Assembly (NCBI GenBank): GCA_022446965.1
Contig: JAKVBV010000016.1
Coordinates: 1-53,149, forward strand
DNA length: 53,149 nucleotides
From: Phycisphaerales bacterium
Lineage (GTDB): Bacteria > Planctomycetota > Phycisphaerae > Phycisphaerales > SM1A02
Direction of reading: 5' to 3'
This document shows positions 535-49,508 of the stretch, one piece after another. The first letter of the stretch is position 1, and each line of letters opens with the position of its first letter. The notes beneath the pieces were generated by a model. It saw nothing but the letters and a program-made list of their open reading frames with translations, did no database searches and was not told where the DNA came from. A program made the translations under genes and the position numbers.

Positions 535-3500
535 TCAACAGGGGCCGAAGGCGCTGATCACCTGCAGCACGTCATCGATGTTCACGACACCGTCATCGTT
601 GGTGTCACCGTTACAGCCACCGTTGCAGTCTTTGCCAAACTGTCCAATCACCGTGAGTAGGTCGTCGATGTTCACGATGCCGTTGCCATCGGTGTCGCCG
701 GGGCATGGGGCAGGCTCGTCCACTTCGCGCATTACCAGTTGACCGTTGCCACCGACAAGACTGTCGCTGCTACCCCCACCGATCGTGACCAACTGGCGGA
801 TGCCGTCGCCGTCGATGTCACCCATGCCGATGAGCTTGGGAGAGTCTCCAGAGGAAAGATCCATGCTGGTGAAGTTCAGGCCACCTTCATTCACGAGCAC
901 GCGGACGATGGGGTTGCCTTCGCTGTCTACGGTGATGGTGGCCAGATCGATGTCGCCATCATCATCGACATCGATCGCTTCGATGTCCTGTGGATTTGTG
1001 CCCACGGGGATCTGCATGCTGGGCATGAAGTCGGAACCATCCGAATTGCTGCGAAGCAAGGCGATCGAGTCGTTAGCCCCAGAGGTCACGGCGATGTCTA
1101 CAAAACCGTCACCAGTGACATCCTTAAGCGCAATACCGCTGATTCCACCGCCGGCGGGATAGACATCGAAGCTGAGCCCGCTGCCGGCGATGCCTGGGAC
1201 ATCGGTACCTTTCAATCTCATCGCATTTCCGGTACTCGTGCCGAATGCAGCGAGCGTACCCTTCTGGCCCTCATCTTCACTCGGGTCGCCAAACACTGGC
1301 ACACCCGAAGGTGAGTCGCCATTGCCACCACCGCCGAGCCCGCCGCCGAGCAACTGCGATGTGCCGACCCAGTATTGAAAGCTCCCAAAGCCGTCGCCGT
1401 CGGTGTCGTCGATGCCGGCGATCAGATCAATGCCGCCAGTGCCGTCAAGATTTACCTGGATGAGGCACATGACCGGTCCGATGGTCGATAGGTCCTGCAC
1501 CGAGAAACCATCGGAAAGGTTGCCGGTGTCGTTGTAGAAACCACGGACCCAACCACTGGCATGGCCCACGGCAAGATCAGTGTTGCCGTCGTTGTCAAAG
1601 TCGCCCATCGCAAGGCTGGTCGGAAAGTGCAGAGTGTTCTGCACCAGTTGCTGGCCCACGCCACCCGATCCGTCGTTCTCGAACACGATCAGTTGGCCTG
1701 GCTCACCGTCGAATACCACGCAAATTTCATCTGCGCCGTCGTTGTTGAGATCAACTATCTCCATCGCGATGGGTGTGCCTGAAACGGTAAGCGAGTTGGG
1801 ATCACCAAAGCCCAGAAGGCCTGAAAGACTTACCACCTCAATAGCCGCTTGCCACGAACCGTCGCTGGTGCCCGGTGCGGGGCCGTAGGTTAGCGCAAAT
1901 GCCTTGTCATCAGACAAAGCAGGCAAGATGGCTGCGCCAAAGCGATCATTTCCTTCAGATGGTGTAGTAGCAGAGTCGATGACCACGAACCGGTCACCGA
2001 CTTGAACCGTTGTGGTGGCCTCGGGCTCGATCCAGACACGCAAGGAACCGGAGAGATTGACAGATTCCGTCACGGTGTAGATATGACCCGACTCAGTCTC
2101 ATAGCCCAAAGCCATCTCTAAACCCGAGTTCGATGCCAAACTAAAGGTGCCCTGAGTGGTTAGACGGCCGAGTTTGCTGATGCCTAACCGGCCGGCTTCA
2201 CCAGCGTCCACATTCCCAATATCTGTGTCACCAATCAGCTTCAGGGTGCCCCAGTCAACCATCATGCTGCCGGCACGCACCGATGGGTTTGATCCAAGTT
2301 GTAATGACAAATGTTCCACTATGGCGCTGTCGCCATCTTCATCTAAAACGAGGATTGGTGAGTCAAAGGCCACCTGAATATGACCAACTCGCAGTTGGCT
2401 GGTATTGCGGAGGAACACGGGGTATGGATCTGCTTCGAGGAGCGAGAAGACGTAGGTGCAATTTGGCTGCGGGGGCACGGTCCAGTTGTTCGGGTCAGTG
2501 AAGGTGCCACCGGTATCGGCTTTCCAATTCACAGTTCGGGCCAGTTCTGTGGTTGCCAAGGCTGCTGGTGGGGCATGATTTCCCGAACGGTCATTTGTGA
2601 ACATAAGCGTGTTGTCACTGATGGCCACGCGTCCACCAAGGTCATTTATGTCCTCTAGGCCCATTGCTTGCACACGAGTATGGAGCAGGTAGTTGCCGTC
2701 ATACCCACGCAGGTAGACCTCGACTGAGCCTGTGTCTGGCCCACGAAAGGACTGGAAGCCGGGTGCGCCCACACATGCCCAGTGGTCCTTGCCATCATGG
2801 CTGATGGCCACTGAACGGCCAAAGCCCCAATGGGAAGGCCATGATGCGGTAGGCGCCAACATGTGTATGGTGCCGCCGCTTGTTACATCCTCGATCAGCA
2901 TTGCAGCGCCAGCGGGGTAACTGTCAGTTCCACCAGGCTGGCCAATGATGACATCGTTGTATCGAGCGTCTATGGCGGTGCCGAATTGGCCACCCCAATC
3001 TGAAGTCGGAGGCATAGAAGACGGAAAGTCGTCCATGTGATCCCAGCCGATATTCTCGGCCAGCACTCGGACAACGCCCGTATCGGCGGCCATCGAGTCA
3101 TCCCAGTCATAGAGAGGTGCGCCGACATAGGCGACCACCGTGCCGTCAGCAGGTCCAATCGCAACAGCAGTTCCAGTTGCATGCAGTCCAGCAAAGGGTT
3201 GCTGGGCGCTGTGCACAAGGGTCCATTCATTTTGGCTGGGGTACTGTTTGTAGATGGCGTAAGCACCGTACGTAAGCACTCCGCCTGTATTGATGTCTAT
3301 GCCAGGCGCACCAACAATGAGATAGTGCACATCGCCTTCCATTGCTTCTACTGTGAAGAGGTCTATGTCGTAACCAGCATGAGCCTGAAGGTGACTAAAT
3401 GGTTCTAGTGTTTGGGGGTTGGTGAGTGATAAGTCTTCCGCAATATTCCAAGTGTGCACTTGTCCTCGCATACCATTAGCGTTTGGACTGCCCACAGCGA

Positions 3501-4977
3501 TGCGCCCATCTGTAATCGCTACGGCAAAGCCCATGTGATCACCGATGGACCCAGATAATTCCCCGATAGGTGTCCACATGCCACTGCTGCGTTGCATGAC
3601 CGTTGCACTACCGGCGCTGTTGTTCGCATCAGGGAAGCCGACGACGGCAAAATCACCAAAGAGATCAATCGCGTGAGGCTGGACCTCGGCATCGTTGATG
3701 TCAATCAGCGTTGCAGCGGTGGTGGGAACTGGGTTGGAGATAGCGGTTTCGCCGTCGCCGTCGAAGTTGAAGAAGTAGTTCACCTCTCCAGAACCATCGA
3801 CTGAACTGGGGGCGCCTACGGCGACTCCGTTGTAATGCATGGCGAGGGACGCGCCCATAGCATCGCCAGCCTCGCCCCAAGCTAGACCTGTTTCTTCTAT
3901 CGAGGCACCCGTAGGCGGGCCATCAGGATTGTCAGGGTTCTCATTCCATGTGTAGCGATACGCCTCAATCAAGCCAGCACCGCCATTGTGACCGGGCGCA
4001 CCCACAACGATGTTTTCGCCATATATCGCAACGGCATCACCGAAGCCAACATCACCCTTGCCTGCCGGACTACCGATATAGAACATCAAGAAGTGCTTCT
4101 GCTTTTCTACGGAATTAGGGTCGTACATCAACCCCCACACAGCGCCGATACTGTCCACCACCGGCATCTGTGGCGATCCGATCATGAGCACTTCATTATT
4201 CACAGCGATCGAGCTACCGATGGCCCCTGCTTGCCACGGCAGGTCAAGTGATGGCATATCCACAAAGTTCACAGCACCATCAATGAGTTGGTAGAAAAAC
4301 ACTGCGCCGCCGTAGTGGTTGGGTGCCGAGGCGTAGATGCGGTCATTGAAGATGGCGACGTCATGACCAAGATTGCTGTTGCCCGTGCCACCAGTGGGGC
4401 CTTCATTAAAGATAGGCCACCATTGACCACCGCTATCTTTCACTTCCTCGAACACGAAAACGCGGCCATTGCCCGTTGGTGCGCCGACAACGGCATGGGA
4501 ACCATGTATGTCGATGGCCGCACCGAACCGTGCATCCACAGGTAGGTCATTAGAGCCTGCAATGGTTGTCGCATGGCTCCACCCGAGATTTTCATCCTTG
4601 TACCATGCTTCGAGGACACCCTTGTCGCGTCCAGGCACACCGACCATCGCCACGCCATTGTCTGAAATCGCCACACCAGCACCGGCTTCTTCGCCCGGGT
4701 CGTACCAATCAGAAATGGAGACGTAGTCAAGGATCCACTCGGGTTCCTCCCAGCGATATATCGCGAATCCGCCCGCGCTGCCATTGGACTCCGGTGCTCC
4801 AACGATCATGTAGGAGTCGGAGGCATCAACCGACTTCCCGAAGTTCGCGGAACTATCGATTGGTGAAGACAGCACTTGGTCGGGTTGGGGAAGCTCGCCA
4901 TCACCTGCAAAGCCACTCGTGCTCAGAGTGAACATGGCACAAGCAGTCAGAACCAATCTCATCAATGGTCGGCGCAC
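535..4977 (-). CDS. Large exported FG-GAP/VCBS repeat protein with C-terminal dockerin
   Basis: About 1480 residues. I chose the GTG at 4977 because GGAGG sits 5 nt before it; an ATG at 4962 is the alternative. Both starts give a signal peptide (RLVLTACAMFTLSTSGFA). Residues about 30-800 are FG-GAP-like repeats (GAAIDIHGSHAVVGAPTGNG, GFAVAITDGRIAVGSPNANG and others). Residues about 815-1060 form a beta-rich stretch introduced by NWKADTGG...DPNNW, a pattern common in PVC surface proteins. Residues about 1074-1410 hold calcium-binding VCBS/FG-GAP units (DLNNDGADEI, DFDNDGNTDLAVG, DVDDDGDIDLATI). The last 60 residues are a double dockerin-like EF-hand module (DTDGNGIVNIDDLL, DTNDDGVVNIDDVL) ending FGPC. 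It is probably exported and surface-attached, with adhesion or polymer binding plausible but unproven. Confidence 0.88.
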   Translation of the reverse strand: MRRPLMRLVLTACAMFTLSTSGFAGDGELPQPDQVLSSPIDSSANFGKSVDASDSYMIVGAPESNGSAGGFAIYRWEEPEWILDYVSISDWYDPGEEAGAGVAISDNGVAMVGVPGRDKGVLEAWYKDENLGWSHATTIAGSNDLPVDARFGAAIDIHGSHAVVGAPTGNGRVFVFEEVKDSGGQWWPIFNEGPTGGTGNSNLGHDVAIFNDRIYASAPNHYGGAVFFYQLIDGAVNFVDMPSLDLPWQAGAIGSSIAVNNEVLMIGSPQMPVVDSIGAVWGLMYDPNSVEKQKHFLMFYIGSPAGKGDVGFGDAVAIYGENIVVGAPGHNGGAGLIEAYRYTWNENPDNPDGPPTGASIEETGLAWGEAGDAMGASLAMHYNGVAVGAPSSVDGSGEVNYFFNFDGDGETAISNPVPTTAATLIDINDAEVQPHAIDLFGDFAVVGFPDANNSAGSATVMQRSSGMWTPIGELSGSIGDHMGFAVAITDGRIAVGSPNANGMRGQVHTWNIAEDLSLTNPQTLEPFSHLQAHAGYDIDLFTVEAMEGDVHYLIVGAPGIDINTGGVLTYGAYAIYKQYPSQNEWTLVHSAQQPFAGLHATGTAVAIGPADGTVVAYVGAPLYDWDDSMAADTGVVRVLAENIGWDHMDDFPSSMPPTSDWGGQFGTAIDARYNDVIIGQPGGTDSYPAGAAMLIEDVTSGGTIHMLAPTASWPSHWGFGRSVAISHDGKDHWACVGAPGFQSFRGPDTGSVEVYLRGYDGNYLLHTRVQAMGLEDINDLGGRVAISDNTLMFTNDRSGNHAPPAALATTELARTVNWKADTGGTFTDPNNWTVPPQPNCTYVFSLLEADPYPVFLRNTSQLRVGHIQVAFDSPILVLDEDGDSAIVEHLSLQLGSNPSVRAGSMMVDWGTLKLIGDTDIGNVDAGEAGRLGISKLGRLTTQGTFSLASNSGLEMALGYETESGHIYTVTESVNLSGSLRVWIEPEATTTVQVGDRFVVIDSATTPSEGNDRFGAAILPALSDDKAFALTYGPAPGTSDGSWQAAIEVVSLSGLLGFGDPNSLTVSGTPIAMEIVDLNNDGADEICVVFDGEPGQLIVFENDGSGGVGQQLVQNTLHFPTSLAMGDFDNDGNTDLAVGHASGWVRGFYNDTGNLSDGFSVQDLSTIGPVMCLIQVNLDGTGGIDLIAGIDDTDGDGFGSFQYWVGTSQLLGGGLGGGGNGDSPSGVPVFGDPSEDEGQKGTLAAFGTSTGNAMRLKGTDVPGIAGSGLSFDVYPAGGGISGIALKDVTGDGFVDIAVTSGANDSIALLRSNSDGSDFMPSMQIPVGTNPQDIEAIDVDDDGDIDLATITVDSEGNPIVRVLVNEGGLNFTSMDLSSGDSPKLIGMGDIDGDGIRQLVTIGGGSSDSLVGGNGQLVMREVDEPAPCPGDTDGNGIVNIDDLLTVIGQFGKDCNGGCNGDTNDDGVVNIDDVLQVISAFGPC

Positions 4978-5066
4978 CTTCTCCTCCACTGCGGCCGATG
5001 GGCCCAAGAGGCCCTGCCGCACCTTTGAGTGTGCCGTGATACGCCCCAAGATCAAGCGTTAGAGGC

Positions 5067-9301: not shown

Positions 9302-9991
9302 TCAGGGGCAGTCGCCGAATTGAGCTATGACCCACAGCAGATCCGACACATTCACGTACCAGTCGAGGTTGCAATCGCCAGGACAGGGCTCGTCCGGTTC
9401 GTCGGTGTCGGGGCATTCGCCCCATGCGGCGATCACGATGAGAATGTCATTGGTATCTACCACACCATCACCGTTGGTGTCGCCGATGCACAGGTCATCG
9501 CTGCCGGTGAGGGTGATGTCTGCAGCTAGGCCGATGCCTTCCATGTTCACCGTGACCGTGCCGAAGGGCCAACCGAGGTCGTACTCGTGAGTGCCCATCT
9601 CCACATTCTCGACCGTAACCACAAGGTTGCCCTCGTCACTGACTGCCGTGAGGAAGTCGAAGGCCATGGCCAGGTCAGCCGGCGGATCGGGGAAGAGAAA
9701 CTCACGGTCGGGGAATGACAGTGGCGTGGGGCCGAACCCAAGCGTGTTGTAGTCGGTGTCATCAAGCATGTCGGTGACATCGAACGGGCCGAAGTCAAAG
9801 CCGAGATAGCTGACCCACGCTTCGATCAGGGTGACGTTGTAGTAGTTCTCATAGAAGGTGGCGTTGGTCGTCACCGTGGTGGGACTCACCCATTGCACGT
9901 CTACGCCGAATGACTGTGCTTCAACGACCCATTGGCCGCTGTCACCGCCGAACAGAAGTGTGGTGGTCAGTGCTGTCGCGAGCAGGCTCAT
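9302..9991 (-). CDS. Small exported protein with C-terminal dockerin
   Basis: 229 residues. A strong Shine-Dalgarno (AGAGGAG) precedes the ATG by 7 nt. A short hydrophobic N-terminus (SLLATALTTTLLFGG) acts as a signal peptide. Residues about 20-165 form a beta-rich domain with many aromatic and acidic residues that I do not recognise. The C-terminus is a dockerin-like pair: CIGDTNGDGVVDTNDILIVI, then a Pro/Glu/Asp linker, then CNLDWYVNVSDLLWVI. The second calcium loop is degenerate (N-L-D-W-Y), so it may bind calcium poorly. Presumably exported and anchored through the dockerin; function unknown. Confidence 0.8.
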   Translation of the reverse strand: MSLLATALTTTLLFGGDSGQWVVEAQSFGVDVQWVSPTTVTTNATFYENYYNVTLIEAWVSYLGFDFGPFDVTDMLDDTDYNTLGFGPTPLSFPDREFLFPDPPADLAMAFDFLTAVSDEGNLVVTVENVEMGTHEYDLGWPFGTVTVNMEGIGLAADITLTGSDDLCIGDTNGDGVVDTNDILIVIAAWGECPDTDEPDEPCPGDCNLDWYVNVSDLLWVIAQFGDCP

Positions 9992-35314: not shown

Positions 35315-36910
35315 TCAGGCGGGCTGGAACGATCCCGCCTGTGCGGCGTTCCAGTGTGCCTGCCAGTCTGCGCTGCCGCCACCGTCCCACAGTTCGCCAG
35401 GCTCCAGATGTTCGTACAGACGCGCGAATGAACGCACATCGGTGGGAGAGGTTCTCCGGCAGACATGCTCCGGCGTGAGTTCCGAGGGGTGATCCAGTCC
35501 AGCCGCGGCCACAACTTGGGCCAGCGCTTCGAGCGTGTTCTTGTGGAAGTGGTACACGCGTTGTGCCTTGTCGGGGATGTCCAGCCCCCGATAGAGCCGC
35601 GGATCTTGTGTGGCCACGCCGGCGGGACAGGTGTTGGTGTGGCATCGCTCAGCTTGGATGCACCCAACGGCGAACATGAAGGCGCGGGCCGCATTGCACC
35701 AGTCGGCACCCATGGCCATGCGAGAGGCGATGCCGAATGCGGTGGCAATCTTGGCCGACGCCACCAACCGAGTGTGCTCTCGGATATCAGAGCCCACCAG
35801 CGCGTTCTGGGCGAAAAGCAATCCTTCGGTGAGCGGCACACCCATGTGGTCGAGGAATTCTTCTGGACCGGCGCCAGTGCCGCCCTCGGCGCCGTCAATC
35901 ACGATGAAGTCTGGATAGAGCTTGGTTTCCGAGATCGCCTTGCAGATGGCGAGAAACTCATGGGGGCGACCGATGCACAGTTTGAAGCCCGCCGGCTTGC
36001 CACCGCTGAGTTCGCGCAGCTGATGATTGAACTCCAGTAGCTCAATTGGCGTGCTGAACGCCGTGTGATACGCGGGACTGATGCAGTCCTGGCCCACATT
36101 CACGCATCGCACTGCGGCGATCTCTGGCGTCACTTTGTCGCCCGGGAGCATGCCGCCGTGGCCCGCCTTGGCCCCCTGCGACACCTTGATCTCCACCATC
36201 TTGATCTGATCGATGGAGGCCATCTCCTTGAACATGCCCGGATCGAAGTTGCCGTCCTTCGTGCGGCATCCGAAGTATCCGCTGCCAACTTCCCACACCA
36301 GATCGCCGTCGTACTTGCGGTGATACGGGCTGCAGCCACCCTCGCCCGTGTCATGATAGAAGCCGCCAAGTGCAGCGCCCTTGTTGAGCGACTCAAGGGC
36401 GTTGGGGCTCAATGCACCAAAGCTCATCGCGGAGATGTTGAGCACCGATGCGGAATATGGCTTGCTCGTGAGCGAATTCCCCACCTGCACACGAAAGTCC
36501 GGGTCAGATTCTGGACGTGGCGTCACCGAGTGGGAGATGTAGGCGTAGTTGTGGCCGTACACATCGAGTTCGGTGCCGAACGCCTTGACCCCTTCGACAT
36601 TCTTCGCTCGCTCGTACACCACCGTGCGAACGACGCGGTTGTACGGCATGCCGTCCATGTCGGCCTCGACGAAGTACTGCATCAACTCCGGTCGTACCGA
36701 TTCGAAGATGAACCGCAGATGGCCCAGGATCGGGAAGTTTCGCAAGATGCTGTGCTTGGTCTGGAACCAATCCCACGTGCCGATCACGGCCAATGGAGCG
36801 CTGAGCACGAGCACGAGGAACCAGGCCCAAGTGTGCTCGATGCCCGCCCAGATGCACGCACCGGTGGCCAGTACGCACGCCAACCAAAGTCCGATCGCCG
36901 CGCCTCGCAT
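35315..36910 (-). CDS. Membrane-anchored FMN-binding glutamate synthase family protein
   Basis: 531 residues from the ATG at 36910, with AGGAGAGG just upstream. Two hydrophobic segments (residues about 3-45) begin the protein. The rest is the central/FMN domain of glutamate synthase: NISAMSFGALSPNALESLNKGA, VSQGAKAGHGGMLPGDKV, FIVIDGAEGGTGAGPEEFLDH, and the iron-sulfur cysteines in CIQAERCHTNTCPAG (C-x5-C-x4-C), followed by GVATQDP. The glutaminase and NADPH subunits are missing, as in stand-alone archaeal-type GltB homologues. Electron donor and true substrate are unknown. It precedes the NiSOD gene by 42 bp on the same strand; the reason for that pairing is not obvious. Confidence 0.9.
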   Translation of the reverse strand: MRGAAIGLWLACVLATGACIWAGIEHTWAWFLVLVLSAPLAVIGTWDWFQTKHSILRNFPILGHLRFIFESVRPELMQYFVEADMDGMPYNRVVRTVVYERAKNVEGVKAFGTELDVYGHNYAYISHSVTPRPESDPDFRVQVGNSLTSKPYSASVLNISAMSFGALSPNALESLNKGAALGGFYHDTGEGGCSPYHRKYDGDLVWEVGSGYFGCRTKDGNFDPGMFKEMASIDQIKMVEIKVSQGAKAGHGGMLPGDKVTPEIAAVRCVNVGQDCISPAYHTAFSTPIELLEFNHQLRELSGGKPAGFKLCIGRPHEFLAICKAISETKLYPDFIVIDGAEGGTGAGPEEFLDHMGVPLTEGLLFAQNALVGSDIREHTRLVASAKIATAFGIASRMAMGADWCNAARAFMFAVGCIQAERCHTNTCPAGVATQDPRLYRGLDIPDKAQRVYHFHKNTLEALAQVVAAAGLDHPSELTPEHVCRRTSPTDVRSFARLYEHLEPGELWDGGGSADWQAHWNAAQAGSFQPA

Positions 36911-37043
36911 GTGTCCTCTCCTGTCGCAGCGGTACCGCCGCGCAGTCGAGACTACCACCTACAGGCGGGGCAAGGACACGAGGGAGGCCTTCCACCGGCT
37001 CTGCGATGGTCTGTTCAACACGGTCGATGTAGACCGGGCGCCG

Positions 37044-37133
37044 CTACGCATCTCGGACATCCGCGATCGTCTCCACGGAGGTCGGTTGCAGTTGGGCAAG
37101 CGCAAGAAACAGCAGTGTGGTGGCGGTGGTCAT
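37044..37133 (-). pseudogene. Short signal-peptide-like ORF, probably a gene relic
   Basis: The ATG at 37133 opens 29 codons ending in TAG. The product starts like a Sec signal (MTTATTLLFLALAQLQP) and then stops. The same frame continues after the TAG for another 60 or so codons. This looks like the remaining 5' end of an exported protein gene, although a small peptide cannot be excluded. Confidence 0.3.
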
Positions 37134-37166
37134 GGGGCGGCAATCCTACGGCAATTTCAAAAACAC

Positions 37167-37194
37167 AACGGCCCGGCGACGAGGCCGGGCCGTT
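37167..37194 (-). terminator. Strong rho-independent terminator (minus strand)
   Basis: AACGGCCCGGC and GCCGGGCCGTT form a perfect 11-bp stem around a 6-nt loop. On the minus strand it is followed by GTGTTTTTG. It sits 32 bp downstream of the dead gene at 37226-37444 and probably served it. Confidence 0.85.
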
Positions 37195-37225
37195 GACTCT
37201 CTCGCCCTCTCGGGGCCCCGAAAGA

Positions 37226-37444
37226 CTACTCGAATTCCAGTCGCATGGTGCCGATTCCGGTGGCTGCTTCCCAGCCGCCGATTCGGACGTAGTACGTCTC
37301 GCCGGCCGTCACGGGGAAGTCGTAGATGCCGCTGTATTAGGCTTGGCACCCGCTCTCCACGCTGGTGTCGTCGTTGCAGGCCACCTGCTCGAGTGCACCG
37401 CAGCTTGCACCCTGATACAGCACCAAAACGGTAGGCTCTGCGGC
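37226..37444 (-). pseudogene. 3' remnant of an exported PPC-like surface protein, with in-frame stop
   Basis: Reading leftward from 37444 gives EPTVLVLYQGASCGALEQVA and then CNDDTSVESGCQA. A TAA follows at 37337-37339, and the same frame continues as YSGIYDFPVTAGETYYVRIG and GWEAATGIGTMRLEFE to a TAG at 37226. This is the C-terminal unit of the PPC-like beta-sandwich common in Phycisphaerae secreted proteins (ACNDD ... AGxTYYxRIGG). The 5' part is gone: the remnant begins exactly where the sulfatase gene starts on the other strand. It retains its own terminator. Confidence 0.7.
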
Positions 37445-38893
37445 ATGCTGACCGCGATATTGACCGCCTGCGCAGTGCTCTCTCCAGGTGATCCACCCAA
37501 CATCATCTTCGTGTTGGCGGATGATCTCGGGTACGGCGAGATGGGGTGCTTCGGCCAAGAGCACATTCCGACACCCTCCATGGACGGCATCGCCGCCGAC
37601 GGTGCCATGCTGACTGAGCACTGGGCCGGCAGCCCTGTGTGTGCACCATCACGCTGCGTGCTGCTCACTGGCCAGCACCCTGGCCATGCGCCAGTACGCG
37701 GCAATTGGGAGAACGCAGGGTGGGGCAACGATCAGCCTGAAGGGCAATACCCATTGCCTGAGGCGTCCATCACCATGGGGGAGGTGCTGAAGGATGTTGG
37801 CTATGCCACGTGCTTCGTTGGCAAGTGGGGCAATGGTGGCCCAGGATCACATGGCCATCCAAATCGGCAGGGCTTCGATCACTTCTACGGGTATCTCTGC
37901 CAACGTGTCGCACACAACTACTATCCGACACACTTGTGGCGCAATGACGAGCGTGACATGCTTGAGGGCAATGAGGAGTGGTTCGCGGCGCATCAGAAGA
38001 TCGAAGCGCCGCTGAGTTCGGATGCCGAGTACTGGGATCGATACACCGCTGGAACGTGGGCGTGCGATGCCATGATCGACGAGGCCGACGCATGGATGCG
38101 CCAGCAGATCAAACGCGACACACCGTTCTTGTTGGTGTACGCATCACCGGTGCCGCATCTGGCCCTGCAGATTCCACCCGATCAACTTGAGCCCTTTGCG
38201 CATTTTGAAGAGACGCCCTATCTGGGCAACAAGAGTTACCTGCCTCATCCGCGACCACGCGCCGCATACGCAGCGATGATCAACGCCTTCGATGCCGAGA
38301 TCGGTCGTTTGATGCAGACGCTTGAAGAAACGAGCCAGACTGAAAACACAATCATCGTGGTGACCTCGGACAACGGCCCGTCCTGGGTGGGCGGTGTTGA
38401 CATGGCGTTCTTCAACTCACAAGGTGGCCTGCGAGGCCGCAAGGGCCAGATCTGGGAAGGTGGCCTGCGCGTGCCCACCGTGATCCGTTGGCCTGGCGTG
38501 GTGGTTCCCGGATCGAGTGTGTCGGTGGCCAGCGGGTTCGAAGACTGGTTGCCGACCTTTGCCGCCGCCGCGGGCGCACACACGCCGGCGGAAGTGGACG
38601 GCATGGACCTTCGTCAGGTGCTCACAACCAACACTGGTCCGGAGCGTGTGCTGTACCGCGAGTTTCCCAGCACAGGATCGCAGGCAGTACGCATGGGGCC
38701 ATGGAAGGCAGTGCGAAACAGGTTGAAGCGAGGTGATCTCACGATCGAGCTGTACAACGTTGAGGTGGATCCGGCTGAATCCAACAACGTGGCTGACGAT
38801 CACCCAGATGTCGTGGCACAGTGTGCCCGCATCATGCAGGACGAGCACGAGCCGTCTCCGGTGTTCCCATTGCCGGGCATTGATACCGACTGA
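37445..38893 (+). CDS. Sulfatase (Cys-type, alkaline phosphatase superfamily)
   Basis: 482 residues from the ATG at 37445; the longer open frame upstream is antisense to the glutamate-synthase-like gene. A short hydrophobic N-terminus suggests export. The enzyme hydrolyses sulfate esters. The metal site starts at NIIFVLADDLGYGEMGCFG and the nucleophile motif is CAPSR with Cys66, to be converted to formylglycine. GYATCFVGKWGNG and VTSDNGPSW match the other conserved blocks. Substrate cannot be read, but N-acetylglucosamine- or arylsulfatase-like enzymes of marine planctomycetes act on algal polysaccharides. TAGGCT ends 7 nt before the ATG. It is convergent with a second sulfatase. No formylglycine-generating enzyme gene is in view. 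Confidence 0.92.
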   Translation: MLTAILTACAVLSPGDPPNIIFVLADDLGYGEMGCFGQEHIPTPSMDGIAADGAMLTEHWAGSPVCAPSRCVLLTGQHPGHAPVRGNWENAGWGNDQPEGQYPLPEASITMGEVLKDVGYATCFVGKWGNGGPGSHGHPNRQGFDHFYGYLCQRVAHNYYPTHLWRNDERDMLEGNEEWFAAHQKIEAPLSSDAEYWDRYTAGTWACDAMIDEADAWMRQQIKRDTPFLLVYASPVPHLALQIPPDQLEPFAHFEETPYLGNKSYLPHPRPRAAYAAMINAFDAEIGRLMQTLEETSQTENTIIVVTSDNGPSWVGGVDMAFFNSQGGLRGRKGQIWEGGLRVPTVIRWPGVVVPGSSVSVASGFEDWLPTFAAAAGAHTPAEVDGMDLRQVLTTNTGPERVLYREFPSTGSQAVRMGPWKAVRNRLKRGDLTIELYNVEVDPAESNNVADDHPDVVAQCARIMQDEHEPSPVFPLPGIDTD

Positions 38894-38900
38894 AGCTGGT

Positions 38901-40211
38901 TCAGAGTGGCGCGGGCATACGCGCACCGGTGTCTTCGCGCCAGCTGCGCAGCAAGGTGCGCATTGCGTCGCGGACGACAGGTTGCGTGTCGGCCAGATTC
39001 TCAGTCTCGCCCGGGTCGTGATGCAGGTCGTACAGTTCGCACTGGTTCGTCTCGTGAAACTCCAGCAACTTGAAGTCGCCGATGCGAATGGCTGAGACCG
39101 GCGTGCTGCGCCACGGGCCATCCACGGCTCCGGCAGCAGGCAGGTATGCGGGGAAGTGCCAGTATTGCGGTCCGCGGTGCACGTCCACATCGCCTTTGAG
39201 CAGTGGCCACAAGGATCGCCCGTCGTGTGCGGGGTCGGCTGGGGCGCCCGCGGCAGCGAGCATTGTGGGCGCCAATTCGTGCAGTGACACCGGCGTGTTG
39301 ATCACGCGGCCTTCATCGACACCCGGTCCGGAGATGATGAGTGGCGTGCGGAGGCCACCTTCGTACAGCTGGCCCTTGCATCCCTTGAGCACGCCGTTGT
39401 TGGCCAGTCGGCCCACGCCGCCGTGGTCGGACATCACCATGACCAGCGCGTCGTCTGAGACATGTTCGAGCACACGCCCAAGGGCTGCATCGGTTCGTCG
39501 CACCATGCAGTCGTACACCGCCTGCCTTCGGGTCCAGTCCGGGTTCGCTTCCAGAACCTGATCGACCTCATCACGGTTCGCCTGCAATGGCGTGTGCACG
39601 GCGAAGAAGGGCAGGTACAGAAACAGCGGTCGTTCATCATCCTTCTGCAGCAACGCGATTGCTTCGTCGGCGAGTCGATCCGTGAGGTGTTCACCATCCG
39701 GGCCGTCGGGCAACTTGGGATTGCTGTACGGCGCCGTGTACGACTTGGGATGTCCCTTGGCGGTGCCTGCAATGTTGCTGTCAAAGCCATGGTCCAGCGG
39801 GTCGTTGCCCAGATGCCACTTGCCCACATGGGCGGTGCGCCAGCCGGCATCCTGCAGGTGTTCAGCGATGGTGCGCGTTGTCTTGGGTAGCGAGGTGCGA
39901 TTCCGTGGTGGGTTGAGTGTGCGCAGTTGGGCTTTGCCTTGCTTGGCCGGCCCCACGGTGAAGATGCCGTGCCGGGGCGTCCACTGACCGGTCATCAAAC
40001 ACGCCCGGGATGGGGCGCAATTGGGCCCGTTCGCCGTGGCGTGCGTGAACAGGGCACCACTTGTCGCGAGCATGTCGAGTGTAGGTGTCTGGTGCCGGCC
40101 GTCGGGCATGCACGACGGATCTGCCCAGCCCATGTCGTCAATGACAACAATCACCATGTCGGCCGGAGCCGACATGGTGCTTGCAATGGATAATAGTGCC
40201 GAGATCAGCAT
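38901..40211 (-). CDS. Sulfatase (Cys-type, alkaline phosphatase superfamily)
   Basis: 436 residues with a signal peptide (MLISALLSIASTMSAPA). Motifs are MVIVVIDDMGWADPSC at the N-terminus, CAPSR with Cys65 as the formylglycine site, AGWRTAHVGKWHLG, and VMVMSDHGGVG, followed by KGCKGQLYEGGLRTPLIISG. It is clearly distinct in sequence from the convergent sulfatase at 37445-38893, so the two are not recent duplicates. Its ATG overlaps the stop of the thioredoxin-domain gene by one base (TGATG), which makes translational coupling likely. Exported, probably acting on sulfated glycans. Confidence 0.93.
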   Translation of the reverse strand: MLISALLSIASTMSAPADMVIVVIDDMGWADPSCMPDGRHQTPTLDMLATSGALFTHATANGPNCAPSRACLMTGQWTPRHGIFTVGPAKQGKAQLRTLNPPRNRTSLPKTTRTIAEHLQDAGWRTAHVGKWHLGNDPLDHGFDSNIAGTAKGHPKSYTAPYSNPKLPDGPDGEHLTDRLADEAIALLQKDDERPLFLYLPFFAVHTPLQANRDEVDQVLEANPDWTRRQAVYDCMVRRTDAALGRVLEHVSDDALVMVMSDHGGVGRLANNGVLKGCKGQLYEGGLRTPLIISGPGVDEGRVINTPVSLHELAPTMLAAAGAPADPAHDGRSLWPLLKGDVDVHRGPQYWHFPAYLPAAGAVDGPWRSTPVSAIRIGDFKLLEFHETNQCELYDLHHDPGETENLADTQPVVRDAMRTLLRSWREDTGARMPAPL

Positions 40212-43826: not shown

Positions 43827-46800
43827 ATGCCGCTGACGGTCAGACATCTGGACGGCCCGTTCAAAGGTCAAGCCCAGACATTTTCGGATGAGATCGAGCA
43901 CATCGTCATCGGGCGTGATCCGTCCGTGTGTCAGATTCTGCTACCTCCCGATGCCCGCATGGCCGGCCGAGAGCATTGCTCACTGGATCGAGTCCGTGGT
44001 CGATATTTGATCGACATGAACGCTGACCGCCGCGTGACCCTCAATGGGCACACGTTGCTCGAGGCGGGCACGCCGCTTCCAGAATCGTGTGAGCTGCAGA
44101 TTGGTCCTGAAGGGCCGCGTTTGAAATTGTTGGTCACGCGTCACTCGCAGATGGCCAGCACGGCAGATCAACACATCGATCAAGACGAAGTCACGCGACG
44201 AGCGGCTCGTCCAGCCAGTGAAGTGGATGTTGCTGCCGTGGCCGAAACGGCCGGTGGATCACGCCGCATCGGATTGATGGCCGGCATGCTGTCGCTCTTC
44301 GCTGCGGTCGGCGGGTTGATCTTCTTCTTCGTTACCAGCAACGACGTGGCCGAGCTGCAGACCGCTGACGCTGAACAAGAAGAGGCGATTGGTGATCTTG
44401 AGGGCCGTGCGGATGAAATGGAAGAAGATCTGGTGATCCTCGGCGCCGACCTGCCCGAGATCATGCAGATCGCGCAGAATTCCGTGTACTTGGTCGTGAT
44501 CAAAGATCCCAATGGTGGCGAGACGGGGATCGGCACAGCATTCACCGTTGCCGATGGCGACGTGGCGACCAATTCCCACGTGGCCAAGTGGTTCGGACAA
44601 TTGGAAGACGGCGAACGCATGGTGCTTCGCAGCAGCGCCATCAATGGCGCTGAGCCGATCGACATCGATGTTACAGGCGCCACGCACCACCCTGGCTACG
44701 CGGCGTTCGCCGAACTCTGGCGCGACTACCTGCCTGTGCGGCTCAATGCCTCCAAGGGCGTCGATCCTGTGCGCAGCGCCGGCTCAGCCTGCGATCTTGC
44801 TTTGTTGCACGTGGATGACGCATCACAGTTGGGGCCAGCCCTGCCGTTGGCGTCCGATGCGCATCAGGGATTGCTGTTGCCTGGTCACGCCGTTGCGGCC
44901 ATCGGCTATCCGATGGAAGGCATGGCCATGGAAGGCGTGAATGTGCGTCAGCCGGTGCCGCAGTCTCAGATTGGCCGTGTCACATCGTTGACCACGTTCT
45001 TCAACACATCCGAAGATGAATCAGAATCCGGGCCCGGCCAGCGGAACATTCTGTTGCAGCACTCTATTCCTGGCACCGGGGGCGCCAGTGGAAGCCCAAT
45101 CCTCAATGGTGCAGGTGCTGTTGTAGGCGTACTCAGTGCCGTGAACTTCGCCATCATCGACGGCCAGCGCATTCCTACTGGCGTGGGCGTGAACTATGCC
45201 CAACGGGCGACGTTGCTCGAAGAGTTGATGGACGGCACAGCCGACACTCGGCTGCCGGCACGCATTGCGAACTGGGACGAAGCGGTGAAGTTCCTTTATC
45301 ACAGTGGCAAGTTGGTCAAGGGGAATGCGGGCATCGATGCGCTCCGCGCCATCTGGCGTCGACAGGTGCAGGACAAGGTCGGTAGCGATGAAGTGGTGCT
45401 CACCCACACCATCGCGAGGGAGTTCTATCCACTCACGTCACTGGAGGCTGCCCGCGGGCCAGATGGCGGTGTTGCCTATGACATCACGACCGACATCACC
45501 GTCGAGACGGGCAAGTTCTATCTGCTGATGGCCGAAGCAGACGCGTCGATCACACTGAATCTGCAAGACGATGCCGGCCTCGCCATAGATGTTCAACACA
45601 TTCCGTTGGGCAGCTTTGCTCAAGGTCTGACGTTCCAAGGTGCGGGCGATGGCACGATTATCGGCGTGGTGTCCACCACCGAGGCGGAGAATGTGACTTG
45701 GGCGTTGGAAGAGGGTGAAAGCGTGGCCGCGGTGCCTTCAAACTTGCTCCGTCTTGCTCGCTCGCAATGGCGTGACGATCTGCACAGTCGCTGGGGTGCT
45801 GAAGTGCGGGATGCTGGGGGCATGTCTTCTTCGGGGTTCACCGTAACGAGTGATCCCGCAGGCCAGTTCTACGAAGTGGAGGAGATCGATCTGCCCACCT
45901 ATGGCCGCTACATGATCGCAGTGATCGCACCGGATCGGACCAACCTGGATCTCAGGCTGTATCAGATCGACGGCGAGAATCGAACACTGCTCGCCGAGGA
46001 TGTGCAGCAGGATTGGTATCCCTATCTCGTCGTCGACAGCGATTATGCATGCACCCTTGAGGCTGAGATCATCTCAGACGAACAAAACATCGACTACGAC
46101 GTGTACCTCTTCCGTGCACTGGTGGCTGGCGACACTGACGGCGATGACAAGGTCGGTGCGGGTGATCTGGTCAATGTGGCACTGAACTTCGGTACCCAGA
46201 GCCCCGAAGACGAGCCGGCTTCTGCGGACATCGACGAGAGCGGCTCAGTCGGCGTGAACGATCTCCTGAAGGTGCTGGACAACTACAGCCAGGAGTGGCC
46301 CATCGAAGCACGCGAGCAACCCAAGCGGCTCATCTGCATGTTCACTTTGGGTGGGTCATATGGTCAGGGCGTGGCCGATATCCACCCGGTGCTGTTTAAT
46401 CTCGAAGATGGTTGGCAGGCCATGGTGAGCAATCGAGTGGCACCATTGGTGGACCGGCTGGGACAAGGCACCTTTGACTGGTGGGGCCACAATATCTGCG
46501 GATATTGGCGCGGCCACGATTACTACTGGGCCAGCGATGAAATCACTGAGGTCATGACCTTCGACCAACTCGCATTTGCGCGGGCGGAGTATCCGGAGCT
46601 GACAAACTTCGCTCCACTCCACTTGTATGCCCAGAACAATGGCATTGAGTTGTACGGGTACATCGGGCAGCCTCGAAGTTATGAGCGTGAGAATACGCCT
46701 GGCGGTATGCCGTTCGATACACAGTGGTCTCATGGCGACACAGCCCAGTTCGACCACTACTACGGTGAATTCGCCAGTAGCGAGTTCATTGGGATCGGGC

Positions 46801-47243
46801 ATGATGCCTCAGTCCATCAACCGTCGGATTCTCCATGGCTCATTCAGATGGTGCCGTACCTCAAGAGTCGAGGCATCGACGTGTTTATCGAGGCGGTTCC
46901 AAAGCGGGCCTCCCCGCATCTATTGGGCATGAACGTGGTGGCAGAGAACCGTGTTTGGGAGCTCTTTGGCAATCATCCCTCGATCTGGTTCACCCAGGAG
47001 GAGATCCGAGCAACAGGCGCCCGCATGTTGCACATGATCACCTGGCCGCTTGGTCAGGCGCCTGGTGATTTAGGGTACGACCCTGATTTTGACAACCATC
47101 AATGGCAGTTCAACAAGGCCAAGGAACTACTGTTGGCTGGCGAGACTGTGGTGTGTCCGATGTACGGCCTGCACACGCGTGGGTATCCGTTGGAGGAGCT
47201 CGTCGATGCCGCATCACAGAGCGCGAATGTCAAGGTTGAGTGA
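43827..47243 (+). CDS. FHA domain - TM - trypsin-like protease - dockerin - C-terminal domain protein
   Basis: 1138 residues; GGGAG precedes the ATG. Residues about 5-105 form an FHA phosphothreonine-binding domain (IGRDPSV, GREHCSLD, LNGHTLLEAG). A single membrane helix at 148-170 (GLMAGMLSLFAAVGGLIFFF) and an acidic coiled coil at about 173-205 follow. Residues 213-475 are an S1/HtrA-like serine protease with H251 in ATNSHVAKW, D323 in ACDLALLHV and S421 in GGASGSPI. Residues 480-765 are beta-rich and unassigned. Residues 767-819 are a dockerin (GDTDGDDKVGAGDLV, ADIDESGSVGVNDLL). The last 310 residues are rich in Trp, Tyr and His and look like a secreted glycosidase-type barrel that I cannot name. 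Topology predicts FHA inside, everything else outside. Convergent with the SGNH gene. Confidence 0.9.
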   Translation: MPLTVRHLDGPFKGQAQTFSDEIEHIVIGRDPSVCQILLPPDARMAGREHCSLDRVRGRYLIDMNADRRVTLNGHTLLEAGTPLPESCELQIGPEGPRLKLLVTRHSQMASTADQHIDQDEVTRRAARPASEVDVAAVAETAGGSRRIGLMAGMLSLFAAVGGLIFFFVTSNDVAELQTADAEQEEAIGDLEGRADEMEEDLVILGADLPEIMQIAQNSVYLVVIKDPNGGETGIGTAFTVADGDVATNSHVAKWFGQLEDGERMVLRSSAINGAEPIDIDVTGATHHPGYAAFAELWRDYLPVRLNASKGVDPVRSAGSACDLALLHVDDASQLGPALPLASDAHQGLLLPGHAVAAIGYPMEGMAMEGVNVRQPVPQSQIGRVTSLTTFFNTSEDESESGPGQRNILLQHSIPGTGGASGSPILNGAGAVVGVLSAVNFAIIDGQRIPTGVGVNYAQRATLLEELMDGTADTRLPARIANWDEAVKFLYHSGKLVKGNAGIDALRAIWRRQVQDKVGSDEVVLTHTIAREFYPLTSLEAARGPDGGVAYDITTDITVETGKFYLLMAEADASITLNLQDDAGLAIDVQHIPLGSFAQGLTFQGAGDGTIIGVVSTTEAENVTWALEEGESVAAVPSNLLRLARSQWRDDLHSRWGAEVRDAGGMSSSGFTVTSDPAGQFYEVEEIDLPTYGRYMIAVIAPDRTNLDLRLYQIDGENRTLLAEDVQQDWYPYLVVDSDYACTLEAEIISDEQNIDYDVYLFRALVAGDTDGDDKVGAGDLVNVALNFGTQSPEDEPASADIDESGSVGVNDLLKVLDNYSQEWPIEAREQPKRLICMFTLGGSYGQGVADIHPVLFNLEDGWQAMVSNRVAPLVDRLGQGTFDWWGHNICGYWRGHDYYWASDEITEVMTFDQLAFARAEYPELTNFAPLHLYAQNNGIELYGYIGQPRSYERENTPGGMPFDTQWSHGDTAQFDHYYGEFASSEFIGIGHDASVHQPSDSPWLIQMVPYLKSRGIDVFIEAVPKRASPHLLGMNVVAENRVWELFGNHPSIWFTQEEIRATGARMLHMITWPLGQAPGDLGYDPDFDNHQWQFNKAKELLLAGETVVCPMYGLHTRGYPLEELVDAASQSANVKVE

Positions 47244-49508
47244 TCAGCCGCACGGTCCCCACGCAGCAATGACATTGAGCAGGTCAAAGACATCAACATC
47301 ACCATTGTCATCGACGTCACCTTCGCCGCCGCCATTGCCCCAATTTGAGAGCAAGATGAGCAGGTCGACGACGTCCGTTTGACCATCACCGTCGAAGTCG
47401 GTCGGGCAACTGCAGTTTCCGCCCACGCTGTTCCCACCTGAGTCGATCCACTCGCCGTTGATGTCATCGGGTGAGTTGCCACAAACGGTCGTGAGCGAGA
47501 GTTCGGCGGCGCATTGGTAGGCGTGCATTCCGCCACCTGCCTCGGCAGTGTTGTTGAGAACTCGGCAGCCCACCCAATGTGACGTGCTTGTCACCAGAGC
47601 GGCGCCACCTCCCACTTGGGCGGTGCAGTTTCGTAGTGTCACATCTACTGCCGTAATCTGGCTCGTCTGGGCGTACAGGCCACCACCATGTGAGGACAGG
47701 CCGTCCTGTAGTGTAGTTTGTGTGACCTCAAGCGTTGATGACAAGAGGTCAACGAGTCCGCCAGTCTCAGCAGCAGTGCCGAGAGCGCATTCGGAATCGG
47801 CTAGTGTGGCGTGGCAATCACGCAGCGCCAGCACGCCGCCTCGGGCAACAGGACTGCCTTGCATGTCGACATGCCGTAGTTGCAGCGCACTGTCGCTGCC
47901 GTAGATGCAGCCGCCGGCGAGGAGTCCGTCGCCCTCCGTGTGGCCAGCCCCGCCGTGCATCTGCAGTCGGCGAATGTCGACATTCGCGTTGTTTTGAATG
48001 CGAATGGCTGGTCCGGCGTCGTTGCCGGCGATGCCACTGGCGTCGTTACTCCATCCTCGTACAGAGGCTTGGATTGAGTCGATGGTCAACGGTCCGGTGT
48101 GCATGCCTGATGCGAGATGCAGGATGTCGCCATCTTCCAGTGTGAGTGTGGACAGGTCTTGCGGGTCACCCTGCACGACGAGGTCGGTTTTCTGATCCAA
48201 CTCACGTTGCAGTTGTTCCCAGACCAGCCCCGCGAGCAGGTTGGCCGAGGCATCATCGCCGTAATGCACACCATCCGGCAGGACGGTGCCCTGAAGATAC
48301 GCATGTGCTCCGGCGGCGAGGTGGAGATTGACGAGTCCAACATCGGCGGTTTGCATTGCGATATCTGCGAGAACAAGCGCAATGCGGTGGTGCCGATCAC
48401 TGTCATCATTGGTGCTCCATGGCGCAACGAGGAGGAAGAGCGGGTTCGCATCAGCATCTACAGCCAACGCGGCAGAGCGATACCGATCGATGAGTTGAGT
48501 GACATGCGATCGCCAGAGGCCTTCAATATCTTGCATCTGGGCCCAGGACATGTTCTGGCCAAGGAGGATCATGAAGCAATTCGGTTGCCGGGTAGCTAGG
48601 AGATATCGCTGGAGCGCTTCATCGTCGTAATGGCCGGCCTCCGTGAGATGGTGCTCAACCGTGAATCCACCCTCGGCGATCGAGTCGACCTGCAACCCCG
48701 GGACATCTGTTCTCCAGATGACCTGTCCCACGTGATAGAAGGTCGAACCTTCAGTGCAGTTTTCTGGACAAGGAAACGGGCCGCCTTGGGCTGTGCTCAG
48801 CCAGGCAGCGGGGGTTCGTACTTGTGTTGTAACTTCACCCGTGCCCATCGGAACGTGCGCGTCAACCCAATCGATCCAGGCGCGATCAGATGCGTCATTG
48901 GGAGAGAAGCTCACATATGGGCCGGCAGAATCACCGCGAAGTGATCGAAACTGAAGTTCTGACAACCCGGTTTGATCATGTGCAAAGATCAAGCGTGCTC
49001 GCAATGGGGCATTGCTGGCCCAGTCGCCGCCCGGATACTCGTCCAGTCGTGTCAATGTGCTGGTGCAATAGTGGGCGTTGGAGGAAAGGCCGGTGCCATC
49101 AGTCACCATGTCGAGCGCGCGATTCGGGATGAACCCATCTTGCCCGTTGCTCCAAGTGTGCGGGTTGCTTGTGCCGACATGGAAGATCGGTCTTGGATAA
49201 ACGTCAAACCCACCTTGTGCCGTGGTTACAACAATTCCCTCGTCGGAGGCAGCAGTCCCACTGGACACGCGGCCTATGAAGTGATCTGGCTTCCATGTCC
49301 GACATACACCACCGACTGTGCTGTGTGCCGCCGACTTCACGGAGTTTGAATCGCCGATGATGAGGAGTCGGCAATCTTCATGCGCAATTCGATGGGCGAT
49401 AGGGCCAACATCGATGCGCATAGGGGCGAAGGGGGTGGCCAGCACTGTCTGAGTTATGAAGGATGCAAGTGCCAGCCCCCCAATAAAAAAAACCACATCT
49501 GCCCGCAC
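47244..49508 (-). CDS. Exported SGNH hydrolase - beta-helix - dockerin protein
   Basis: 754 residues from a GTG at 49508, preceded by GAGGAG 8 nt upstream. The signal peptide is VVFFIGGLALASFITQTVLA. Residues about 45-435 are an SGNH/GDSL-like esterase: LLIIGDSNSV with Ser54 as likely nucleophile, and DGVHYGDDA with the catalytic Asp-x-x-His near 414-417. Residues about 440-690 are a right-handed beta-helix with repeated GG-rich turns (LRHVDMQGSPVARGGVLAL, SSHGGGLYAQTS). The C-terminus is a dockerin (PTDFDGDGQTDVVDLLILLS, GDVDDNGDVDVFDLLNVI) ending WGPCG. Probably deacylates or desulfates-type processes on extracellular glycans are only guesses; esterase activity is the reasonable inference. 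Eight T residues in the signal-peptide codons may be a slippage site. Confidence 0.85.
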   Translation of the reverse strand: MRADVVFFIGGLALASFITQTVLATPFAPMRIDVGPIAHRIAHEDCRLLIIGDSNSVKSAAHSTVGGVCRTWKPDHFIGRVSSGTAASDEGIVVTTAQGGFDVYPRPIFHVGTSNPHTWSNGQDGFIPNRALDMVTDGTGLSSNAHYCTSTLTRLDEYPGGDWASNAPLRARLIFAHDQTGLSELQFRSLRGDSAGPYVSFSPNDASDRAWIDWVDAHVPMGTGEVTTQVRTPAAWLSTAQGGPFPCPENCTEGSTFYHVGQVIWRTDVPGLQVDSIAEGGFTVEHHLTEAGHYDDEALQRYLLATRQPNCFMILLGQNMSWAQMQDIEGLWRSHVTQLIDRYRSAALAVDADANPLFLLVAPWSTNDDSDRHHRIALVLADIAMQTADVGLVNLHLAAGAHAYLQGTVLPDGVHYGDDASANLLAGLVWEQLQRELDQKTDLVVQGDPQDLSTLTLEDGDILHLASGMHTGPLTIDSIQASVRGWSNDASGIAGNDAGPAIRIQNNANVDIRRLQMHGGAGHTEGDGLLAGGCIYGSDSALQLRHVDMQGSPVARGGVLALRDCHATLADSECALGTAAETGGLVDLLSSTLEVTQTTLQDGLSSHGGGLYAQTSQITAVDVTLRNCTAQVGGGAALVTSTSHWVGCRVLNNTAEAGGGMHAYQCAAELSLTTVCGNSPDDINGEWIDSGGNSVGGNCSCPTDFDGDGQTDVVDLLILLSNWGNGGGEGDVDDNGDVDVFDLLNVIAAWGPCG

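What the first reader, a model, noticed from the sequence alone, without database searches (positions are those of the whole stretch)
43827..47243. One protein joins a cytoplasmic FHA domain to an extracellular protease, dockerin and glycosidase-like domain
Seen: FHA motifs at the N-terminus, one membrane helix at 148-170, an acidic coiled coil, a serine protease with H251/D323/S421, a dockerin at 767-819 and a 310-residue aromatic-rich C-terminal domain. Known: FHA domains bind phosphothreonine in the cytoplasm, and HtrA-like proteases act outside it. Inference: phosphorylation inside the cell could control clustering or activity of a surface protease whose dockerin and terminal domain attach to wall or glycan partners. 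I do not know of a described protein with this domain order.
Basis: partly seen in the sequence, partly recalled or inferred. Interest (0 to 1): 0.72.

Follow-up and report, generated by a model that had tools for sequence, protein, structure and literature searches.

The report
Membrane protease with swappable sensor-like tails
A planctomycete protein built from a small cytoplasmic domain, one membrane helix and an outward-facing protease carries at its end a sugar-enzyme-like barrel that relatives have exchanged for unrelated domains, which suggests a membrane sensor with changeable detector heads.

Summary
Two beta-sandwich domains (about 540-766) were missed. The FHA domain is divergent: two residues that usually grip phosphothreonine are replaced (Ser to Gly in 15 of 16 family members, Asn to Arg/Lys in 16 of 16), so control by phosphothreonine is not supported. 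The C-terminal domain models well as a TIM barrel (pLDDT 90), glycosidase-like in fold, with an Asp and a Glu fixed in 21 of 21 sequences, and matches no Pfam family. New here: seven long forms share the chassis but carry three different domains after the dockerin; nine short forms stop before it, and all nine lie tail-to-tail with an FHA/HD-GYP gene, not found at five long-form loci. A second contig of the same assembly is 92% identical in DNA up to codon 840, then drops to 66% at the dockerin/barrel border. FHA-trypsin fusions were described in 2008. Best reading: an inner-membrane sensor protease with exchangeable periplasmic heads, working like Clostridium RsgI sensors though not one of them. 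New variant of a known kind; mechanism inferred.

The parts
43827..44132 (+). Divergent FHA domain, residues 1-102
   Evidence: Pfam FHA E 8.3e-5 over cut-off; R30, R48, H50 invariant in 16 of 16, Ser site is Gly47, Asn site is Arg68
44160..44162 (+). T112 in the linker between FHA and helix, invariant in 16 of 16
   Evidence: any role as a phosphosite is speculation
44274..44333 (+). Transmembrane helix, about residues 150-169
   Evidence: Kyte-Doolittle window mean 2.33; start at 146-151 in 16 of 16 members
44340..44471 (+). Acidic helical / possible coiled-coil stretch, about 172-215
   Evidence: helix 174-219 in a low-confidence model
44481..45236 (+). S1-type serine protease (Trypsin_2), about 219-470; H251, D323, S421
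45444..46124 (+). Two beta-sandwich domains (about 540-766), resembling collagen-binding/PPC domains in shape
   Evidence: well-modelled part of the full-length model; Foldseek match to ColG tandem domain 5iku; no Pfam PPC hit
46125..46286 (+). Dockerin-like double calcium-loop repeat, residues 767-820
   Evidence: Pfam below cut-off here, above in homologue L034
46346..46346 (.). Change point between window and second copy (contig C72): 92.4% DNA identity before, 66.4% after
46326..47216 (+). Type A C-terminal (beta/alpha)8 barrel, about 834-1130; D993 and E1022 at ends of strands 4 and 5
   Evidence: model pLDDT 90.3, pTM 0.89
47244..49508 (-). Convergent gene: beta-helix plus terminal dockerin-like repeat (both weak in Pfam); stands where the syntenic short-form loci of genus g36 have an FHA/HD-GYP gene

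Best explanation
A single-pass inner-membrane sensor protease. Shown by sequence: a conserved chassis (divergent FHA, helix, protease with intact triad, two beta-sandwiches) which in some lineages also has a dockerin-like module and a C-terminal head, and the head differs between lineages. Inferred: the barrel and beta-sandwiches bind or trim a glycan or glycoprotein in the periplasm; binding changes the oligomeric or proteolytic state of the protease; the change is passed through the helix to the FHA domain, which docks a cytoplasmic partner (in the short-form lineages most likely the neighbouring FHA/HD-GYP protein). The FHA domain probably acts as a protein-docking or dimer module and not as a classical phosphothreonine reader.
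For: Architecture. Three head types on one chassis: type A in window, C72, G001, G549; type B in G550, G551; type C in G553, with no detectable profile similarity between A and the others (hhalign E 0.23 and 0.44; B against C 0.003, probability 10%). Chassis tree: short forms on one side (100/100), three label changes in all. Heads also occur in other proteins: type A matches in 14 of 181 family genomes at E 1e-8, B in 38 of 181 at E 1e-6, C in 8 of 181 at E 1e-6. Own-assembly change point at codon 840. Signalling context: 9 of 9 short-form loci lie tail-to-tail with an FHA/HD-GYP gene (FHA and HD over the Pfam cut-off in the two scanned, GAF below it); separate dockerin-type A proteins lie near GAF-SpoIIE-like genes in 4 of 4 loci whose flanks I listed and CHASE2-like genes in 3 of 4 (by eye; Pfam confirmed for one locus). 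Foldseek match of the full model to the S1C domain of C. thermocellum RsgI9, 7sjy (E 6.8e-6); RsgI proteins have one helix and divergent sensor heads (PMC12203970, passages read).
Against: No experiment; no ligand known. The protease triad is intact, so the protein may simply degrade proteins. The HD-GYP neighbour is absent at the long-form loci (0 of 5 with enough flank), so the signalling partner of the window protein itself is unknown. The barrel could be an enzyme and not a sensor. The FHA match is weak, and 3 of 7 scanned members have no Pfam FHA hit. The full-length model is poor; the RsgI9 match is one of many S1 proteases in the list, superposes badly (rmsd 17.8), and the top row is a Cry toxin.
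Confidence: 0.42

Rival explanations
1. A periplasmic or surface degradation enzyme: protease plus glycosidase in one chain break down glycoproteins, with the dockerin-like module docking to a scaffold as in the hypothetical 'planctosome' of freshwater Phycisphaerae.
For: Intact triad; GH-like barrel with fixed Asp/Glu; dockerin-like repeats are common in the genome (20 matches at E 0.01 in G000); planctosome proposal in PMC6461901 (passages read); sulfatase-like genes nearby (named by eye).
Against: No Pfam cohesin match in G000, G001, G002 (9 of 61 genomes match); a cytoplasmic FHA domain and inner-membrane anchor are not needed for a degradative enzyme; the short-form gene is tied to a signalling gene.
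Confidence: 0.27
2. Protein quality control: an HtrA/Deg-like periplasmic protease whose beta-sandwiches and barrel select clients, with FHA for assembly.
For: Foldseek matches to M. tuberculosis HtrA; weak sequence matches to Spl/V8 and Deg/HhoA proteases and to MarP and HhoA models far below their cut-offs.
Against: No PDZ hit in Pfam at E up to 1; patchy distribution, 15 of 181 family genomes, 9 of 104 of the better ones, is unlike a housekeeping protease.
Confidence: 0.15
3. One reading: phosphorylation of threonine inside the cell controls clustering or activity of the outer protease through the FHA domain, possibly through T112 of its own linker (GarA-like, recalled).
For: FHA profile match; R30 and H50 kept, T112 invariant 16 of 16; a Ser/Thr kinase gene with receiver and GAF domains lies about 4.6 kb from the short-form gene in G048.
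Against: Canonical Ser is Gly in 15 of 16 and canonical Asn is Arg or Lys in 16 of 16.
Confidence: 0.1

Closest known systems
RsgI anti-sigma factors of Clostridium thermocellum, above all RsgI9 (S1C peptidase-like plus NTF2)
   Same: One membrane helix, cytoplasmic signalling domain, outside an S1-type peptidase fold or glycosidase head, heads differing between paralogues (PMC12203970 passages; 7sjy match)
   Different: FHA instead of the RsgI N-terminal domain, intact protease triad in 16 of 16 members, a dockerin-like module in the long forms, planctomycete host
FHA-FHA-trypsin protein NP_811686.1 of Bacteroides thetaiotaomicron
   Same: FHA N-terminal to an S1 protease (PMC2605481 passages)
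   Different: Two FHA domains; no dockerin or barrel in the listed architecture
'Planctosome' proposed for freshwater Phycisphaerae
   Same: Peptidase and dockerin modules in the same class of bacteria (PMC6461901 passages)
   Different: That model uses M12B/M14 peptidases and cohesin-bearing proteins; no Pfam cohesin match in this genome
Glycoside hydrolase TIM barrels (GH13, GH5, GH113, GH20 and others)
   Same: (beta/alpha)8 fold; VIA-align Z 12.9, rmsd 4.0 over 252 residues to GlgE
   Different: At most 15% identity in any row shown; other TIM barrels score nearly alike (KDO8P synthase 11.7; tryptophan synthase leads in Foldseek)

Membership tests
FHA domain (PF00498) | Profile match above the curated cut-off | tested here: met
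   23.4 bits against 20.7; 4 of 7 scanned members pass, 3 show no hit
FHA domain, phosphothreonine-binding type | Canonical Arg, Ser, His and Asn of the phosphopeptide site (recalled) | tested here: not met
   Arg30 and His50 kept; Ser to Gly in 15 of 16, Asn to Arg/Lys in 16 of 16
S1 serine peptidase (Trypsin_2) | Profile match and His-Asp-Ser triad | tested here: met
   E 2.1e-12; triad 16 of 16
HtrA/DegP | PDZ domain after the protease | tested here: not met
   No PDZ in Pfam at E up to 1; NCBIfam HhoA/HhoB/HtrA model 8.6 bits against 450
Dockerin type I | Two calcium-binding F-hand repeats, profile over cut-off | tested here: inconclusive
   Loops visible by eye; 12.7 bits against 22.9; homologue L034 passes with 26 bits
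Dockerin type I | A cohesin partner in the genome | tested here: inconclusive
   No PF00963 match in G000; divergent cohesins could be missed
Glycoside hydrolase | TIM-barrel fold (for the barrel families) | tested here: met
   Model pLDDT 90.3; matches
Glycoside hydrolase | Match to a known GH sequence family | tested here: not met
   No GH family in Pfam for any of 23 members at E up to 1; no GH among PDB sequences at E up to 10
Glycoside hydrolase | Pair of catalytic acids | tested here: inconclusive
   D993 and E1022 fixed in 21 of 21 (2 of 23 rows have gaps), at ends of strands 4 and 5 of the model; activity not tested
RsgI anti-sigma factor | RsgI-type N-terminal domain | tested here: not met
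   Pfam shows FHA and no other N-terminal family
RsgI anti-sigma factor | Single helix with differing outside heads | tested here: met
RsgI anti-sigma factor | Cognate SigI and autocleaved periplasmic domain | not tested
   no call
Planctosome | Cohesin-bearing anchor and adaptor proteins | tested here: inconclusive
   No Pfam cohesin in G000, G001, G002

The most novel reading that the evidence does not exclude
A class of bacterial transmembrane sensors not described before, in which a conserved FHA-protease chassis carries interchangeable heads joined through a dockerin-like module, the heads being exchanged by recombination right at the dockerin/head border even between close strains, and the FHA domain passing the signal without classical phosphothreonine binding.
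Probability: 0.3. Interest if true: 0.72.

Novelty: new variant of a known kind. Interest (0 to 1): 0.52.

Why it matters
If true, planctomycetes would have an analogue of the RsgI polysaccharide sensors built from other parts, and the exchangeable heads would point to the glycans each lineage senses. It would also give a clear test of whether an FHA domain with a remodelled binding site still works in signalling, and a defined candidate pair (FHA-protease and FHA/HD-GYP protein) for linking periplasmic proteolysis to c-di-GMP.

Tried and rejected
Full-length AlphaFold model: mean pLDDT 48.1, used only for the stretch about 501-766 and for loose protease matches; its matches to Cry toxins (rank 1) and C. 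perfringens enterotoxin were taken as shared beta-sandwich shape and not followed. Barrel against PDB sequences and Pfam: nothing meaningful. Types B and C against PDB sequences: nothing significant; the best for type C is a hyaluronoglucosaminidase (1fcq) at E 0.22. Phylum search with the chassis: 106 of 392 genomes have a match at E 0.001, own included, mostly short partial hits; the FHA part and the protease part match in one open frame in at least G211, G270, G314 and G174. Type A outside the family: 4 of 347 class genomes at E 1e-4 and 2 of 294 phylum genomes at E 1e-5, own genome included in both. Families not listed by VIA-align are not excluded. Whether C72 is a paralogue in the same cell, a strain variant or an assembly chimera cannot be settled: about 1 kb upstream of its gene matches the window's upstream flank and the contig then ends. 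Literature: searches returned 0 papers, 55 twenty-four, 71 one, 81 two, 82 three, 86 three; passages were read in PMC2605481, PMC7159879, PMC6461901, PMC11557425 and PMC12203970; the other papers were seen in the listings only.

Full report
What is there. The ORF at 43827-47243 encodes 1138 residues. Pfam gives FHA (26-93, E 8.3e-5, over the cut-off), Trypsin_2 (236-435, E 2.1e-12) and a sub-threshold dockerin (767-816, E 0.16). The most hydrophobic stretch starts at residue 150; in the window protein two arginines precede it and acids follow, and the start lies at 146-151 in 16 of 16 members. The window protein and C72 also have a window above the threshold at about residue 400, inside the protease. 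Foldseek pairs that model with S1 proteases (M. tuberculosis HtrA, V8, the S1C domain of RsgI9) and with the ColG tandem collagen-binding domain; its first row is a Cry toxin, and the superpositions are poor.

The FHA domain is divergent. Aligned to a solved FHA-like chain (3gqs, E 0.04), the serine of the S-R-x-H motif is Gly47 and the usual asparagine is Arg68. Across 16 members Gly stands in 15 (Ser in G001) and Arg or Lys in 16, while R30, R48 and H50 never change. That these residues hold phosphothreonine in well-studied FHA domains is recalled knowledge. Of 7 members scanned with Pfam, 4 pass the FHA cut-off and 3 show no FHA hit. T112, just after the domain, is invariant in 16 of 16; its role is unknown.

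The tail is a TIM barrel. With 23 sequences AlphaFold gives pLDDT 90.3 and pTM 0.89; I count eight barrel strands in its DSSP. Foldseek finds TIM barrels at E about 1e-4, led by tryptophan synthase alpha, with fucosidases and amylases among them; VIA-align puts glycosidase-type barrels first (GlgE, Z 12.9, rmsd 4.0 over 252 residues), with other barrels close behind. Asp993 and Glu1022 are fixed in 21 of 21 sequences that have a residue there (2 of 23 have gaps) and lie at the ends of strands 4 and 5. None of 23 members matches a glycosidase family in Pfam. So the fold supports 'glycosidase-like'; enzyme activity is not shown.

The tail differs between relatives. A family search found the FHA-protease chassis in 15 of 181 genomes and 4 of 45 genera at E 1e-12. 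Seven genes are long: four carry the type A barrel (window, C72, G001, G549), two a different domain of about 440 residues (type B: G550, G551) and one a third of about 290 (type C: G553), each after the dockerin; nine genes stop at about residue 765, before the dockerin. Profile comparison finds no relation between A and B or C (E 0.23 and 0.44; in the other direction 0.082 and 0.32); B and C may be remotely related (0.003, probability 10%). Heads also occur in other proteins: matches in 14, 38 and 8 of 181 genomes, the fused copies counted in. In a chassis tree the short forms fall on one side (100/100), type A on one side (100/99), and all labels need three changes; the root is not known. 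G549, of another genus, pairs with G001 of the window's genus (94/95, below the starred level), so transfer between genera is possible.

A border within the own assembly. Contig C72 of the same assembly holds a second full-length gene. From about 1 kb upstream its DNA is 92.4% identical over 3515 positions up to window 46346 (codon 840) and 66.4% over the 898 after it; a single change point there gains 177 log-likelihood units. The convergent gene beyond it is also much changed (38.8% protein identity over the part held). In the barrel the window is closer to G001 (70%) than to C72 (64%), whereas in the chassis it is 95% identical to C72 and 64% to G001. This fits replacement of the head in one of the two by recombination; a chimeric contig of a mixed sample would look the same, and C72 is only 5549 bases long.

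The neighbourhood. Sulfatase-, TlpA- and AhpD-like genes on one side and MFS- and HAD-like genes on the other (AhpD by Pfam; the rest named by eye) are shared by the window and G001 and, mostly, by short-form genomes of genus g36 such as G037, G560 and G561. Genus g1 long forms and g36 short forms thus sit at the same locus. This does not hold for the g5 short forms (G048, G006) nor for the g35 long forms (G549, G551, G553), whose fetched flanks show none of this order. In 9 of 9 short-form loci the gene is tail-to-tail with an FHA/HD-GYP gene, one cut by a contig end; the two scanned have FHA and HD over the Pfam cut-off and a GAF match below it. None of 5 long-form loci with enough flank has it (window, G001, G549, G551, G553); the window and G001 have a beta-helix/dockerin gene there. 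HD-GYP relatives occur elsewhere in 8 of 8 genomes searched (six with a long form, plus G002 and G036). Separate secreted-looking proteins that join dockerin and type A barrel lie beside genes for a CHASE2-cyclase and a GAF-SpoIIE protein in G000 (Pfam), and beside similar-looking genes in G036, G552 and G554 (by eye; in G554 the stretch ends before a CHASE2 gene could show). Flanks of the G001, G002 and G500 copies were not examined for this.

How it probably works. An inner-membrane anchor in a diderm puts protease, sandwiches, dockerin and barrel in the periplasm (inference). I read it as a sensor protease: the head binds a glycan or glycoprotein, the protease responds, and the FHA domain docks a cytoplasmic partner. 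It works like the RsgI sensors of C. thermocellum, where one chassis carries carbohydrate-binding, glycosidase or S1C heads (PMC12203970, passages), but is not one: the N-terminal domain differs. A degradative role is the main rival. Dockerin-like repeats abound (20 matches in G000 at E 0.01), yet no Pfam cohesin appears there, so scaffold docking is unproved.

Novelty. FHA joined to trypsin was listed in 2008 (PMC2605481) and a dockerin-peptidase complex was proposed for freshwater Phycisphaerae (PMC6461901). The literature searches listed no paper that I recognised as describing the full order or the exchange of heads. I rate it a new variant of a known kind.

Noticed in passing
window 47244-49508 (-): Convergent gene whose N-terminal part has GDSN and DGVHYG stretches like an SGNH/GDSL hydrolase (by eye), followed by a beta-helix and a dockerin-like end; Pfam shows only weak beta-helix and dockerin matches.
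   Followed up: partly
L034 398-7349: Own-genome dockerin plus type A barrel protein (525 aa) beside CHASE2-cyclase and GAF-SpoIIE genes (Pfam) and a polytopic membrane protein; similar order by eye in L043, L120 and L121.
   Followed up: partly
L040 612-2810 and 7397-11260: Receiver-GAF-Ser/Thr kinase gene in the same stretch as the short-form FHA-protease and its FHA/HD-GYP neighbour.
   Followed up: partly
L110 5748-13520: In G551 a second gene with a type B domain lies within about 3 kb of the FHA-protease that ends in type B, a possible local source of the head.
   Followed up: no
window 535-5055 (-) and 9302-9991 (-): Two more secreted-looking proteins with C-terminal dockerin-like repeats, one of 1506 aa; such repeats are frequent although no Pfam cohesin was found in the genome.
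   Followed up: partly
window 36065-40211: Two neighbouring sulfatase-like ORFs on opposite strands (named by eye); the second has matches near the gene in several relatives.
   Followed up: partly
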